Assembly: GCA_001447805.1 (NCBI GenBank)
Contig: CP013099.1
Location: 1-64,000 of the forward strand
Origin: Candidatus Tenderia electrophaga
GTDB lineage: Bacteria > Pseudomonadota > Gammaproteobacteria > Tenderiales > Tenderiaceae
Direction: 5' to 3'
DNA: 64,000 nt
The notes under the pieces were generated by a model. The model worked only from the letters and a program-made list of their open reading frames with translations. It was not told the origin of the DNA and searched no databases. Of the stretch, positions 8,131-12,919 are shown piece by piece; position 1 is the first letter of the stretch, and every line of letters begins with the position of its first letter. A program made the position numbers and the translations under genes.

Positions 8131-8934
8131 ATGAGCAGACACGGATGGATATTGGCCGTGATGGCGTTTGCCATCAGCGCCAACGCCCAGGCGTTGGTGA
8201 TCGACAGCTTTGGTCTGGACCAAGGCCCTTATACGGATTCCACGCCAGGGGGAGGAAGTGAAAAAACGATTACCGGCGGTGTGGGTGGGGAAATCGTCTC
8301 TTTATCCTCGCTAGATGTTATTGGCGGAGCACGCGACCTGTGGACCAGCATGATCTCGGGTAGCGGAATGTCCACGGTCGAGGTTTCGGCAGGGACGCTC
8401 AACTTCAGCACCACCGCAGGTACCGTGGGGCGAGCTCAGGTGCAGTGGGACGGGTTCGATGGCTCTTCGGCGATCGATGCCACCGGGCTGGGGGGGATCG
8501 ATTTTCTTTTTGGCGGCAGCGATATGTCGCTGCATGTCAGCACCAATGCCGGCTTTCTGCTGGAGCTCAGTCTCTATACCGACGCGACGCGCTGGACCAC
8601 GGTCTCCCGGATGACCACCGCTGGCAGCGCAAGCTATCTGTTTCCCTTCGCCGACTTCAATACCCCGACCCTGTGCGGAATGGGTTCGGTAACGTGTGGC
8701 ACTGTCGGCGGGGTGGAGACCTCCAATGTAGGCGCCGTTGTGCTCGACATCAACCGCCTTAGCACTGCAGGTCTCGAAGCTAGTATCGGGCCACTCTCCG
8801 TGGTGCCCGAGCCGGAGATGCTGTATCTGTTTGGCATTGGCATGCTGGCCGCCCTGGTGCGTCACCGCCCGCGGCCGCGGGGGCGGGCAGCCGGATCAAT
8901 AGGGTCAGAGCCATTGGGTTTCACGAATCAATAA
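8131..8934 (+). CDS. PEP-CTERM sorted exported protein
   Basis: 267 residues. Signal peptide (WILAVMAFAISANAQA), a beta-rich Gly/Ser/Thr-rich secreted body, then the tripartite PEP-CTERM signal: VPEPEML, a hydrophobic helix YLFGIGMLAALV and an Arg-rich cluster (RHRPRPRGR). PEP-CTERM proteins are cleaved by exosortase (EpsH/XrtA) and usually displayed or released in exopolysaccharide producers; the exosortase must be encoded elsewhere. Oddity: 14 extra residues follow the Arg cluster, and these are encoded by a GGGTCAGA...TCTGACCC palindromic repeat at the edge of a mobile-element scrap, so the original stop was probably lost and replaced. Confidence 0.85.
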   Translation: MSRHGWILAVMAFAISANAQALVIDSFGLDQGPYTDSTPGGGSEKTITGGVGGEIVSLSSLDVIGGARDLWTSMISGSGMSTVEVSAGTLNFSTTAGTVGRAQVQWDGFDGSSAIDATGLGGIDFLFGGSDMSLHVSTNAGFLLELSLYTDATRWTTVSRMTTAGSASYLFPFADFNTPTLCGMGSVTCGTVGGVETSNVGAVVLDINRLSTAGLEASIGPLSVVPEPEMLYLFGIGMLAALVRHRPRPRGRAAGSIGSEPLGFTNQ

Positions 8935-8943
8935 ATCTGACCC
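8902..8943. repeat. REP-like palindrome at island edge
   Basis: Perfect 8-base inverted ends GGGTCAGA (8902-8909) and TCTGACCC (8936-8943) with a 26-base spacer. It overlaps the last codons of the PEP-CTERM gene. CTGACCC recurs at 9066-9072, on the other side of the IS3 fragment. Confidence 0.6.
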
Positions 8944-8953
8944 GGTTTTTCTT

Positions 8954-9061
8954 ACCAAAGAAACTCTCTGCCACAGCATTGTCCAGGCATTCTCCTTTCC
9001 GGCTCATGCTGCTGATGAGTTTATTTTCTCTTAGCAGTCTTTGGTAGTCTCCTGATGCGTA
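8954..9061 (-). pseudogene. IS3-family transposase fragment (OrfB C-terminal part)
   Basis: 36 codons read YASGDYQRLLREN, ISSMSRKGECLDNAVAESFFG: the conserved stretch around the last acidic residue (E) of the IS3-family DDE transposase. Homology stops sharply at both ends, and each edge carries a CTGACCC-G/T-GTTT copy (8937-8950 and 9066-9080). No inverted terminal repeats or OrfA remain, so it is an inert scrap. Confidence 0.85.
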
Positions 9062-9083
9062 GGTGCTGACCCTGTTTGTTTTT

Positions 9084-9404
9084 TTAACCAATAATTTCCG
9101 CCCTAAATAGATTGCATTGCAGGTCAGTATATAGCTGCACTGTCTTTCCTGACATTTTTGCTGTGAGTAGGTAGCTGACAAGAATTTTATACGATGTTGC
9201 GCTAACGTTCGGATCATTTGTTCGCAATTTCATGGATGTGCAGGTCGGAGATGGATCATCCGTCGTTATGTATATCTCATCATTGTTTGCGCCATGATTA
9301 ATTATCATTCTTTTAATTTTTCCCGTAGCACCCTCTTGTTCGTCTACGGCATACAGGTTACTTGATATTGAAGCCATAAAAGCCAAAGCAATTATTCTTT
9401 TCAT
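9084..9404 (-). CDS. Integron-cassette-type small secreted protein B
   Basis: 106 residues from the ATG at 9404 (AAGGTG 7 bases upstream; a GTG at 9413 is possible). Signal peptide MKRIIALAFMASISSNLYA. The mature part contains IKRMIIN, DEIYITTDD, TCTSMKL, LVSYLLTAKMSGKTVQLY and a final CNLFRAEIIG; two Cys are predicted to pair. It is laid out like cassette protein A next door and like many unnamed secreted proteins of marine integron cassettes. The start lies about 20 bases after the attC core GTTAGAG, the usual cassette geometry. The cassette's own attC should follow the stop at 9084 but is missing, replaced by the IS3 scrap. Function unknown. Confidence 0.75.
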   Translation of the reverse strand: MKRIIALAFMASISSNLYAVDEQEGATGKIKRMIINHGANNDEIYITTDDPSPTCTSMKLRTNDPNVSATSYKILVSYLLTAKMSGKTVQLYTDLQCNLFRAEIIG

Positions 9405-9420
9405 TTTGTACACCTTATAT

Positions 9421-9526
9421 CTCTAACGCCGCAAATCACCGGCACATTGGAGCAACGGGAGGCTTGTGGCATTCGCCACAAACGAGCGTTGCGTAAATGT
9501 GTCCGTGTGAATTTGCATTGTTATGT
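9421..9526 (-). repeat. attC recombination site of an integron gene cassette
   Basis: Read on the minus strand, the 106-base site opens with R'' ACATAAC (9526-9520), then AATGCAAATTCACACGG, and closes with GGTGATTTGCGGC and R' GTTAGAG (9427-9421). The two L arms pair as GCAAAT-CAC-CGG-CAC when three bases (T, A, A) are left unpaired: the extrahelical-base signature of attC sites. The centre forms a second hairpin TTGTGGC-GAAT-GCCACAA. It separates two minus-strand cassette genes. No integron integrase gene is present in the window. Confidence 0.85.
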
Positions 9527-9545
9527 TTTTGATCGCTCCCAAGCG

Positions 9546-9875
9546 TTACGGCACAACTTTTATATTACTAATCTCAGCCCAATCGTTAGGGTCACTACAA
9601 TAGACGTTTATATTTTTACCCGCCGCAAATGCCATTAATATTACTGACATTAACTGCTCTTTATTTCCTTGTGAGCTTCCCACTTTTGTCCAGGTTTTTT
9701 GTACACCGGACTCAACTACTGATGTACATGCATTGTTATATCCGTCTAATCTAATTTCAGTTCCGTCGGAATGGGTTTCCAACTCCAGAATTGTTGTTGG
9801 ACCAGTCCATCCCGTAGCAGCCAAACAATTTCCTGAAATTCCTGCGGCAATACATAGAGCTAATATTTTTTTCAT
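9546..9875 (-). CDS. Integron-cassette-type small secreted protein A
   Basis: 109 residues, ATG at 9875 with GAAGGAAAA upstream. Signal peptide MKKILALCIAAGISGNCLA. Mature part: TTILELETHSDGTEIRLDG, NACTSVVES, LMSVILMAFAAGKNINVY, then CSDPNDW. Same plan as protein B: short beta-rich domain, Cys-Thr-Ser around the middle, AGK(N/T)(I/V)xxY near the end. A core-site sequence GTTATGT (minus strand, 9911-9905) lies 29 bases upstream of the ATG and a complete attC lies 19 bases past the stop, so this is a full cassette of about 485 bases. Function unknown. Confidence 0.8.
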   Translation of the reverse strand: MKKILALCIAAGISGNCLAATGWTGPTTILELETHSDGTEIRLDGYNNACTSVVESGVQKTWTKVGSSQGNKEQLMSVILMAFAAGKNINVYCSDPNDWAEISNIKVVP

Positions 9876-9904
9876 TATTATTTTCCTTCATCTATTGGTT
9901 TAAA

Positions 9905-9911
9905 ACATAAC
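9905..9911 (-). other. Residual attC core site upstream of cassette A
   Basis: GTTATGT on the minus strand, 29 bases before the cassette A start codon. The rest of the upstream attC has been lost: the adjoining bases are the end of an IS1182-type element (GAGTTTTTCTACAGACTC). Confidence 0.6.
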
Positions 9912-10052
9912 GAGTCTGTAGAAAAACTCAAACACAAGTCTCTCCACCATCACTCGCCTCAGTTAATTTTTTACTACTCCCTATTTGACCCAATCCTCAC
10001 CGAGAAATAATACAGATCAATTCTTCCCGATACTTGAGACCTATTCCATTCG

Positions 10053-10241
10053 TTATGCCCCATTCCACGCATATCGGTGTATTTTGAATATGTTGTGGAT
10101 CATGCTAATCAATTGCCACTGGCCGTTGACCTTGTGCTTTCCTCTCAGGCTAAATCGCTTGAATCCTATGCTGCTCGTGATGTTCCCGAATACGGGCTCA
10201 ACAGTACCTAGCCGATGGCTATAGATATGCCTTCCCGTGGC
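10053..10241 (-). pseudogene. IS1182-type DDE transposase, C-terminal fragment
   Basis: 62 codons and a TAA on the minus strand: SHRLGTVEPVFGNI, RFSLRGKHKVNGQWQLISMI, HNIFKIHRYAWNGA. The EPVFGNI / LRG-x-KV-x-GQW series is the C-terminal signature of IS1182-group DDE transposases (E of the triad included). No start codon and no N-terminal part remain; the frame is cut at about 10241 where the RAYT repeat array begins. Downstream on the minus strand, the terminal-repeat-like GAGTTTTTCTACAGACTC (9912-9930) marks the IS end. Confidence 0.85.
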
Positions 10242-10244
10242 GCT

Positions 10245-10411
10245 ATAATAAAAGGGGTCAAAGCCCTTTACGAATAAAAGGGGTCAACGAATAAAAGAAC
10301 GAATAAAAGGGGTAATAAAAGGGGTCAAAGCCCTTTAAAAAGTATCTGTCACTTGCTATCCCGAATAAAAGGGGTCAAAGCCCTTTAAAAAGTATCTGTC
10401 ACTTGCTATCC
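10245..10411 (+). repeat. RAYT-associated repeat array, left side
   Basis: Six units beginning AATAAAAGGGG or a degenerate form (10245, 10273, 10290, 10302, 10314, 10364). Full units contain the hairpin AAAGGG-GTCAAAG-CCCTTT. The last two are an exact 48-base direct repeat with 50-base period (10314-10361 and 10364-10411), including AGTATCTGTCACTTGC. The array ends 31 bases before the transposase start and is inverted relative to the array on the other side of the gene. Confidence 0.9.
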
Positions 10412-10442
10412 TGCACATACTAAAATGGATAGGGTAGTTGCA

Positions 10443-11144
10443 ATGCCAAGAAAACCCCGTTTCTTCCTCCCAGGAGTTCCGGTTCATATCGTTCAGCGTG
10501 GCCATAGTCGTGAGCCTGTTTTCTTTGAAGATAACGACTATCTAGCATACCTACGCTGGTTGAAAGAAGGGGCGTCACGGTACAACATAGATATACATGC
10601 CTATGTGCTGATGACAAACCATATACATATCCTGGCCACGCCACATGATAAGGATGGTATTACAAGAATGATGCAGTATATAGGTAGGTTCTATGTTTCA
10701 TATATTAACCATACTTACGGCACAAGTGGTTCTATCTGGGAGGGGCGCTACAAATCCAGTCTTATTCATGACGAAGAGTACCTGCTTACATGCATGCGCT
10801 ATATAGAACTGAATCCAGTCAGGGCTAATATGGTGCGGTCACCTGGGCACTATCGTTGGTCTAGTTATCGATCTAATGGCCAGGGCAGGGAAGATGAGCT
10901 GCTAACACCCCATACAATGTATGTATCGTTAGGTAAAACTAATGCTGCTCGTACGGAATCATATAAGTCGCTATTTAAAGCCCACCTTGATAAAAATATG
11001 TTGGATGATATTCGAGCGGCCTGGCAGACGGGAACTCCGTTGGGGAATGATTATTTCCGCGAGCAGATCGAGGCCAAGCTGAAGCTCAAAGTAGGCCAGG
11101 CCCGAAGAGGTAGGCCATCTAAGCCAAAGGATAATGATGAGTGA
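10443..11144 (+). CDS. REP-associated tyrosine transposase (RAYT, Y1 family)
   Basis: 233 residues from the ATG at 10443 (AGGG 10 bases upstream; an ATG at 10425 is less likely). Single-strand DNA transposase of the IS200/IS605-like Y1 superfamily. Family features: MPRKPRFFLPGVPVHIVQRG, the HUH motif in LMTNHIHILATP, catalytic Tyr candidate in MMQYIGRFYVSYIN, then GSIWEGRYKSSLI and MRYIELNPVRANMV. It appears intact. Both flanks carry inverted arrays of GGGGTCAAAGCCCTT hairpins, the presumed substrates. Basic C-terminus (GQARRGRPSKPK). The last codons and stop overlap a 34-base sequence that is repeated at 11262-11295. Confidence 0.95.
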   Translation: MPRKPRFFLPGVPVHIVQRGHSREPVFFEDNDYLAYLRWLKEGASRYNIDIHAYVLMTNHIHILATPHDKDGITRMMQYIGRFYVSYINHTYGTSGSIWEGRYKSSLIHDEEYLLTCMRYIELNPVRANMVRSPGHYRWSSYRSNGQGREDELLTPHTMYVSLGKTNAARTESYKSLFKAHLDKNMLDDIRAAWQTGTPLGNDYFREQIEAKLKLKVGQARRGRPSKPKDNDE

Positions 11145-11341
11145 TATGTGGCAATATGCATTATAAGGGCGTTGACCCCTTTAGATTTTTTTATAAGGGC
11201 TTTGACCCCTTTAGATGTGACCCCTTTAGATGACCAAGGGCTTTGACCCCTTTAGATGACCATGAGTGATATGTGGCAATATGCATTATAAGGGCTTTGA
11301 CCTCTTTAGATGGCCCCTTTAGATTTGACCCCTTTAGATAC
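11137..11341 (-). repeat. RAYT-associated repeat array, right side
   Basis: Seven minus-strand units of ATCTAAAGGGGTCAAAGCCC or truncated versions (about 11161-11186, 11191-11216, 11217-11231, 11235-11257, 11286-11311, 11312-11325, 11326-11340). The 34 bases at 11137-11170, including the transposase stop, recur exactly at 11262-11295, so the array grew by duplication of the gene's 3' end. Confidence 0.9.
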
Positions 11342-11674: not shown

Positions 11675-12919
11675 ATGATTAGTTATGATGCGGACAAAGA
11701 AGCGGCCATGAAACCGGACAATAGCACACCCCTGGACAGGGGTGAGCCCGTATCTTTGATGGAACCTATGAGGATCTCCGAAGGTTCTCGCGATAGGGGA
11801 GAGCTCGCCGATCTTGCGGTCGAGTTGGCGGCGCATTCCGCAGGATTTCGCCGGAGCCTCCCGGAAGGCATCCTGACATCCCTGGCGGAGCTGGTCCGGG
11901 CAATGAACTGTTATTACAGCAACCTAATCGAAGGCCACGATACCCACCCGGTCGACATCGAACGCGCCCTGAAAAACGATTACAGCACCAACGCGGAAAA
12001 ACGGAACCTGCAACTCGAAGCCAAAGCACACATCGCGGTTCAGCAATGGATCGACGGCGGCGGAGTGCGCGGGCGCAGCGTAAGCGCGGACGGTATTTGC
12101 GAGATCCACGGTCGGTTTGGTGAACTCTTGCCGGATGAACTGCTGTGGGTTAAAAATCCTGATAATGGCGAACGGATGCGGGTCATTCCCGGTGCGCTTC
12201 GCGGACGTGATGTCAAAGTCGGTGAACACATCCCGATCAGTCCCGGCGCGCTTCCGCGTTTTCTCAAGCAATTTGAACAGACTTACAGCGGCCTGGGAAA
12301 AGCGGAGACGATTATAGCGGCTGCGGCAGCACACCACCGGCTATTATGGATACACCCATTCCTGGACGGCAATGGACGCGTAGCCAGACTGATGTCATAT
12401 GCGATGCTTCTAGACGCCCTGGATACCGGCGGCATTTGGTCTATTGCCCGTGGTCTTGCCAGGAACGTGCGGTCATACAAGAACCATTTGGCCCAATGTG
12501 ATCTTCCGCGCCACAATGATCTCGATGGGCGCGGCAATCTCAGTGAGCAAGGCTTGGTCTCGTTCACGCATTTCTTCCTTGAAATCTGCCTCGACCAGGT
12601 CAAGTTTATGGAAGAGTTAGTCCAGCCCGACCGGCTTAGGGGGCGTATTCTGCTCTGGGTCGAAGAAGAAATCCGCGCCGACGCGCTGCCGCAAAAGGCC
12701 GGGCGCATCCTGGAAGCAATTCTTTACCGAGGAGAACTACGGCGTGGGGACGTTCCGGAACTGATTGGGGCGAGCGACCGCCACTCCCGCCGCGTCGTTG
12801 CCGCCCTAATCGAACGCGGTGTTCTCGTCTCGGAAAGCACGCGCGCACCGCTGCGCCTCGCCTTCCCGGCCAAGCTGGCATCACGGTGGATGCCAGGACT
12901 ATTTCCGGAGCAACGCTAG
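11675..12919 (+). CDS. Fic family protein (AMP transferase-like)
   Basis: 414 residues if started at 11675 (ATG at 11708, residue 12, is an alternative; neither has a strong ribosome-binding site). The Fic core motif HPFLDGNGRVARL (H of HxFx(D/E)GN(G/K)R) is intact, so AMP or another NMP can be transferred to target hydroxyls. An N-terminal inhibitory helix is visible as YYSNLIEG (S/T-x-x-x-E-G), the class II arrangement with autoinhibition in cis. C-terminal winged-helix-like part (GRILEAILYRGELRRGDVPE, then GASDRHSRRVVAALIERGVL) probably binds DNA. Such stand-alone Fic-wHTH proteins are common on islands; no antitoxin gene is adjacent. Lies between RAYT repeats and tRNA-Phe. Confidence 0.92.
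   Translation: MISYDADKEAAMKPDNSTPLDRGEPVSLMEPMRISEGSRDRGELADLAVELAAHSAGFRRSLPEGILTSLAELVRAMNCYYSNLIEGHDTHPVDIERALKNDYSTNAEKRNLQLEAKAHIAVQQWIDGGGVRGRSVSADGICEIHGRFGELLPDELLWVKNPDNGERMRVIPGALRGRDVKVGEHIPISPGALPRFLKQFEQTYSGLGKAETIIAAAAAHHRLLWIHPFLDGNGRVARLMSYAMLLDALDTGGIWSIARGLARNVRSYKNHLAQCDLPRHNDLDGRGNLSEQGLVSFTHFFLEICLDQVKFMEELVQPDRLRGRILLWVEEEIRADALPQKAGRILEAILYRGELRRGDVPELIGASDRHSRRVVAALIERGVLVSESTRAPLRLAFPAKLASRWMPGLFPEQR

What the first reader, a model, noticed from the sequence alone, without database searches (positions are those of the whole stretch)
9072..9911. Integron-type cassette remnant with a foldable attC site
Seen: attC (9421-9526) with R''/R' core sites, paired L arms with three extrahelical bases and an internal hairpin; a 485-base cassette with start codon 29 bases after one core and stop 19 bases before attC; a second cassette starting 17 bases after the next core. 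No integrase gene in the window. Known: clusters of attC without integrase (CALIN) exist. Both genes encode signal-peptide proteins of the same plan.
Basis: partly seen in the sequence, partly recalled or inferred. Interest (0 to 1): 0.7.

Follow-up and report, generated by a model that had tools for sequence, protein, structure and literature searches.

The report
Displaced integron cassettes beside attC-seeking transposon
The hairpin is a genuine integron recombination site (attC) from a broken-up two-gene cassette array, and it borders the remains of a jumping element whose relatives in several phyla land, in one orientation, on exactly this kind of site.

Summary
Window 9421-9526 (minus strand) is a true attC: it folds with three extrahelical bases, and a covariance model of this genome's attC sites shows 19 covarying pairs and detects class 1 integron attCs. 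It lies between two small-gene cassettes cut off at both ends. The genome has two full-length integron integrases (chromosome 3.096 Mb; 107 kb replicon) and six more strong chromosomal attCs, so these cassettes are displaced from a resident integron system.

Its transposase is IS1182-type (DDE). In 39 of 40 junction-resolved insertions (Gammaproteobacteria, Desulfobacterota, Nitrospirota, Rokubacteria, a Bacteroidetes bin) the element sits between two GTT triplets. In 24 of 35 assessable foreign insertions the left GTT is the R' core of an attC, always R', always one orientation; chance expectation is about 1%. Known attC-targeting elements are IS1111-attC (DEDD) and group IIC-attC introns; no IS1182-type case turned up in the literature I could search. 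Targeting is strongly supported by sequence; recognition of the folded site is inferred.

The parts
9421..9526 (-). attC site: R'' ACATAAC (9526-9520), arms with three extrahelical bases, inner hairpin, R' GTTAGAG (9427-9421)
   Evidence: fold z -4.9; 19 covarying pairs; 109.5 bits with model R1
9546..9875 (-). cassette 1 gene, 109 aa, signal-peptide-like start, function unknown
   Evidence: ORF; no Pfam/NCBIfam family over cut-off
9084..9404 (-). cassette 2 gene, 106 aa from ATG 9404, signal-peptide-like start; its own attC is missing
   Evidence: ORF; only sub-threshold DUF5992 similarity, E 0.15
9905..9911 (-). core of cassette 1 (GTTATGT); its GTT at 9911-9909 directly abuts the IS end
   Evidence: sequence
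9912..10241 (-). remnant of the right end of the 1735-bp IS1182-type element (IS positions 1406-1735), carrying the C-terminal part of the transposase
   Evidence: 92.7% identity over 330 bp to complete copies; last 63 aa 95% identical
8921..9065 (-). IS3-family transposase fragment that truncates the distal end of the array
   Evidence: NF033516, E 4.4e-12 over 43 aa of ORF 8921-9217

Best explanation
The locus is a fragment of an integron cassette array (two small secreted-protein-like cassettes with one genuine attC) displaced from the genome's own integrons and eroded at both ends by mobile elements. The upstream edge is the right end of an IS1182-type insertion sequence. That lineage uses a DDE transposase to insert at the R' core of attC sites: the target triplet GTT ends up on both sides, the transposase-start side faces the attC and the other end faces the next cassette. 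Shown by sequence: attC identity, GTT on both sides, the attC R' preference, the fixed orientation, and several near-identical copies in this genome. Inferred: that the transposase recognises the attC hairpin (folded strand or cruciform) rather than a sequence, that the GTT pair is a 3-bp target duplication, and that cassettes were scattered by integrase action at secondary sites before IS insertion.
For: attC. Two integrases in the genome; attC hits beside both. IS copies and their GTT junctions in this genome. GTT on both sides in 39 of 40 resolved insertions. attC model hit ending exactly at the left junction in 24 of 35 foreign loci, all on the transposase-sense strand; chance about 0.9% per GTT, P about 1e-40. 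IS-end pattern search that does not presuppose GTT gives the same picture. Relatives at 45-51% identity keep GTT, distant IS1182 members do not. Conserved flank letters are only C-GTT and GTTA. DDE transposase families. Stem-loop targeting is reported for IS1272, also IS1182 family (PMC5678879).
Against: The window copy has lost its left end, so its own target cannot be seen. About a third of foreign insertions show no attC at the left end, and two or three of the own-genome copies sit at GTT without an attC on the left (926 kb, 329 kb). Five of the 24 attC junction hits are weak on their own (E above 0.1). Three of the six attCs used to train the model are IS-adjacent. No experiment shows transposition or attC activity.
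Confidence: 0.85

Rival explanations
1. The IS recognises only a short double-stranded core (CGTT / GTTRRRY); attC sites are hit because they carry that core, without structural recognition.
For: Only C-GTT and GTTA are well conserved around the junction; some insertions are at GTT sites without an attC (926 kb copy, L062).
Against: R'' carries the same core on the other strand, yet none of 24 attC insertions is at R''. GTT triplets are about 100 times commoner than attC R' sites in these loci, yet most insertions are at attC.
Confidence: 0.2
2. The transposase is guided by integron integrase bound to attC, as was suggested for ISAjo2-type transposases and XerC.
For: Explains R' over R'' and the fixed orientation; IS1202-family elements target dif/pdif sites in one orientation (PMC10132070); the host here has two intI genes.
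Against: Insertions also occur at GTT sites without an attC; whether every host carries intI was not tested.
Confidence: 0.2
3. The IS does not target attC; it was picked up and moved by the integrase as part of cassettes, so it merely ends up at core sites.
For: GTT on both sides coincides with the IntI crossover triplet; the IS terminus GAR recreates a GTTRRR-like core.
Against: The lineage also inserts cleanly at GTT inside non-cassette DNA, for example an OmpA-like gene in L062 and the 926 kb site, with the same exact ends, as expected of its own transposase.
Confidence: 0.08
4. The hairpin at 9421-9526 is a chance palindrome or terminator, not an attC.
For: Short inverted repeats are common.
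Against: Folding z-score, 19 covarying pairs with shared bulges, related sites between cassettes elsewhere in the genome, and a model that also finds class 1 attCs.
Confidence: 0.01

Closest known systems
attC sites of chromosomal and class 1 integrons
   Same: R''/R' cores, paired L arms, three extrahelical bases, position between cassettes; one model detects both
   Different: Sequence is specific to this genome; single attC in a truncated two-cassette fragment without adjacent integrase
IS1111-attC group (IS110/IS1111 family; Tetu & Holmes 2008, Post & Hall 2009, cited in PMC11187229 and PMC12444791)
   Same: Insertion sequences found at one end of attC sites
   Different: Those have a DEDD transposase, subterminal inverted repeats and seekRNA guidance (PMC11187229); here a DDE IS1182-type transposase, terminal inverted repeats and GTT on both sides
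IS1182 family, including IS1272
   Same: Transposase family (NF033551 268.7 bits) and, for IS1272, stem-loop targets (PMC5678879)
   Different: IS1272 replaces its stem-loop target and lacks target duplication; this lineage keeps the attC and leaves GTT on both sides
Group IIC-attC introns
   Same: Target attC hairpins, also in CALINs (PMC7923331)
   Different: Ribozyme/retroelement, inserted at the R'' side in TTGT/T and opposite to the cassettes (PMC7923331); here R', same orientation as the cassettes
ISAjo2 group, IS1202 family (PMC10132070)
   Same: DDE insertion sequence that targets a tyrosine-recombinase site in a fixed orientation
   Different: Targets dif/pdif 5 bp from the XerC site with a 5-bp duplication; different IS family

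Membership tests
attC site | R'' and R' cores flanking paired arms with extrahelical bases | tested here: met
attC site | structure conserved through compensatory changes among related sites | tested here: met
   19 of 37 pairs with both-side changes in six sites
attC site | recombination by an integron integrase | not testable with these tools
   needs an assay
CALIN | at least two attC sites close together without an integrase (definition from general knowledge) | tested here: not met
   only one attC in the window; met elsewhere, for example C1:327339-327919
IS1182 family | transposase over the curated NCBIfam cut-off (270 bits) | tested here: inconclusive
   268.7 bits over 487 of 488 positions, 1.3 bits short; a 47%-identical relative is over it at 288.9
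IS1182 family | DDE catalytic domain | tested here: met
   DDE_Tnp_1_6 and DDE_Tnp_1; D142 and D303 invariant in 14 aligned sequences, EPVF motif at 461 in own
IS1111-attC group | location at one end of attC sites | tested here: met
   24 of 35 loci; works like it, is not a member
IS1111-attC group | DEDD transposase with subterminal inverted repeats | tested here: not met
   DDE transposase; inverted repeats are terminal
Group IIC-attC intron | group II intron with reverse transcriptase, opposite orientation | tested here: not met
   protein is a DDE transposase; element reads in the cassette direction

The most novel reading that the evidence does not exclude
A widespread IS1182-type lineage carries a DDE transposase that recognises the folded attC hairpin itself and inserts at its R' foot. 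Because its GAR terminus recreates a GTTRRR core, the upstream attC stays usable and the IS becomes part of the next mobile cassette, so the element rides the integron system.
Probability: 0.3. Interest if true: 0.75.

Novelty: new variant of a known kind. Interest (0 to 1): 0.62.

Why it matters
attC sites share structure more than sequence, so a simple DDE transposase that finds them would be a tractable example of structure-guided target choice. It would add a second, unrelated IS family that shapes integron arrays and marks displaced cassettes, and the IS end is a simple probe for attC clusters that other methods miss.

Tried and rejected
Rfam scan of the locus found nothing relevant. Arm-pairing and duplex-energy scores for attC discriminated poorly (the stricter version put 13 of 40 left flanks at the 1% and 21 of 40 at the 5% control level) and were replaced by the covariance model. 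IMG/VR held no relatives of the transposase; plasmids held three, on marine replicons of 0.67-1.3 Mb. Cassette proteins had no plasmid homologues, no family over cut-off and no usable predicted fold (mean pLDDT 42). No uninterrupted copy of the 926 kb site was found in the same genus. In L062 the flanks joined with one GTT give an open 262-aa OmpA-like frame, but keeping both GTTs also stays in frame, so this is compatible with, not proof of, a 3-bp duplication. Distant IS1182 relatives L170 and L173 lack GTT flanks; with so few outgroups no tree was built.

Full report
CHECK OF THE OBSERVATION. The minus strand of 9421-9526 contains R'' ACATAAC, a pair of arms with three extra bases on the L'' side, an inner hairpin and R' GTTAGAG. 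Folded as ssDNA it reaches -27.4 kcal/mol against -14.7 (sd 2.6) for shuffles. Similar sites exist elsewhere in the same genome. An alignment of six of them gives 37 pairs, 19 with compensatory changes, and shared bulge columns. The covariance model R1 made from it finds seven full-length chromosomal sites above 58 bits in five places. It also finds class 1 integron attCs it was not trained on, behind dfrA12/aadA2, dfrA14, VIM-11, aac(6')-Ib and catB8. The attC is real.

INTEGRON CONTEXT. The genome (3.657 Mb chromosome, 107 kb second replicon) has two full-length integron integrases well above the curated cut-off. One is at 3.096 Mb, with weaker attC hits 3-4 kb away at 3,092,524 and 3,091,813; the other is on the second replicon, with a weak attC hit at about 80.8 kb. 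Homologues of the chromosomal intI at 64-68% identity occur in four of the six other genomes searched from the genus, some broken. The window cassettes are therefore best read as displaced members of a resident integron system. They hold only one attC, so the formal CALIN definition is not met here.

WHAT BOUNDS THE REMNANT. On the distal side the second cassette is cut off within about 20 bases of its stop by sequence containing an IS3 transposase fragment. On the proximal side, base 9912 is the terminus GAGTCTGTAGAAAAAC of an insertion sequence of which 330 bp remain (92.7% identity). The genome holds five complete copies (1735-1737 bp; four differ by at most one base from each other or the reference) and one further truncated copy. 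The 508-aa transposase matches DDE families and NCBIfam IS1182 at 268.7 bits, just under the 270 cut-off.

TARGET OF THE ELEMENT. In this genome every complete copy reads ...GTT|GAGG...ACTC|GTT.... Complete attCs precede the left end at 1409.8, 3051 and 3087 kb. At 329 kb and in the window the right end abuts the first core of a cassette. One copy (926 kb) is at a lone GTT. All five places with a strong chromosomal attC thus carry an end of this IS at a cassette core. Forty-seven related loci from other genomes were fetched. Where both ends could be placed, GTT is present on both sides in 39 of 40 insertions, own copies included (one, L076, after a one-base shift of the called end); the exception is L072, a relative at 42% identity. 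R1 hits end exactly at the left junction in 24 of 35 foreign loci, all on the transposase-sense strand. Nineteen of these have E of 0.1 or less; the other five are weak on their own but sit at the same exact position. With 59 R1 hits among 6292 GTT triplets, chance would give about 1% (P about 1e-40). None lies at R''. A pattern search for the IS end alone, in nine genomes, again showed GTT at element ends and new attC-like junctions (L141, L142, L166), while other pattern matches, apparently chance ones, lacked GTT. Relatives at 45-51% identity (L084-L087) keep the GTT, two of them beside a visible attC; distant IS1182 members L170 and L173 do not.

MECHANISM. The conserved flank letters are essentially C-GTT and GTTA, which cannot alone explain the choice of attC, nor of R' over R''. 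The simplest reading is that the transposase senses the attC hairpin or cruciform and joins at its 3' foot with a 3-bp stagger. This fits the reported stem-loop targeting by IS1272 of the same family (PMC5678879). Guidance by bound IntI, as suggested for ISAjo2 and XerC (PMC10132070), is a live rival. The terminus GAR would restore a GTTRRR core, so the attC may remain usable; this is inference.

NOVELTY. attC-targeting IS (IS1111-attC) and group IIC-attC introns are known. Searches of the open-access library for IS1182 with attC or integrons gave nothing on point, but subscription papers and ISfinder were not available, and the IS1111-attC paper itself was not held. I rate it a new variant of a known kind.

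LIMITS. No experiment was done. Three of six training attCs are IS-adjacent. About a third of foreign insertions show no attC hit. The window copy cannot show its own left target.

Noticed in passing
window 10425-11144; repeats 10246-10411 and 11161-11320: REP-associated Y1 transposase gene (NF047646, 74.3 bits, cut-off 80) flanked by short repeats of the type ataaaaggggtcaaagccctt; the repeats begin where the IS1182-type remnant stops.
   Followed up: partly
G000 C1:1407466-1409851 (L033): Two copies of the IS in tandem sharing one GTT (CTC-GTT-GAGG), the outer one truncated.
   Followed up: partly
G000 C1:3094.6, 3493.3 and 1412.5 kb: Three copies of a 282-283-aa tyrosine recombinase; one lies directly beside the chromosomal integron integrase.
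   Followed up: no
G000 C2:62296-62332; window about 9866-9902: The leader and start of cassette 1 (TAAACCAA...AAGGAAAATAATAATGAAAAAA) is 89% matched before a lipoprotein-like gene on the second replicon.
   Followed up: no
G000 C1:327.3-329.3 kb (L015, L031): Displaced cassettes with two attCs, one encoding a cold-shock-like protein; the IS left flank here runs into the middle of an open reading frame, suggesting a secondary-site insertion.
   Followed up: partly
window 8131-8934 and 11675-12919: PEP-CTERM-type protein gene (just under the Pfam cut-off) and a Fic-domain protein gene flank the mobile-element cluster.
   Followed up: no
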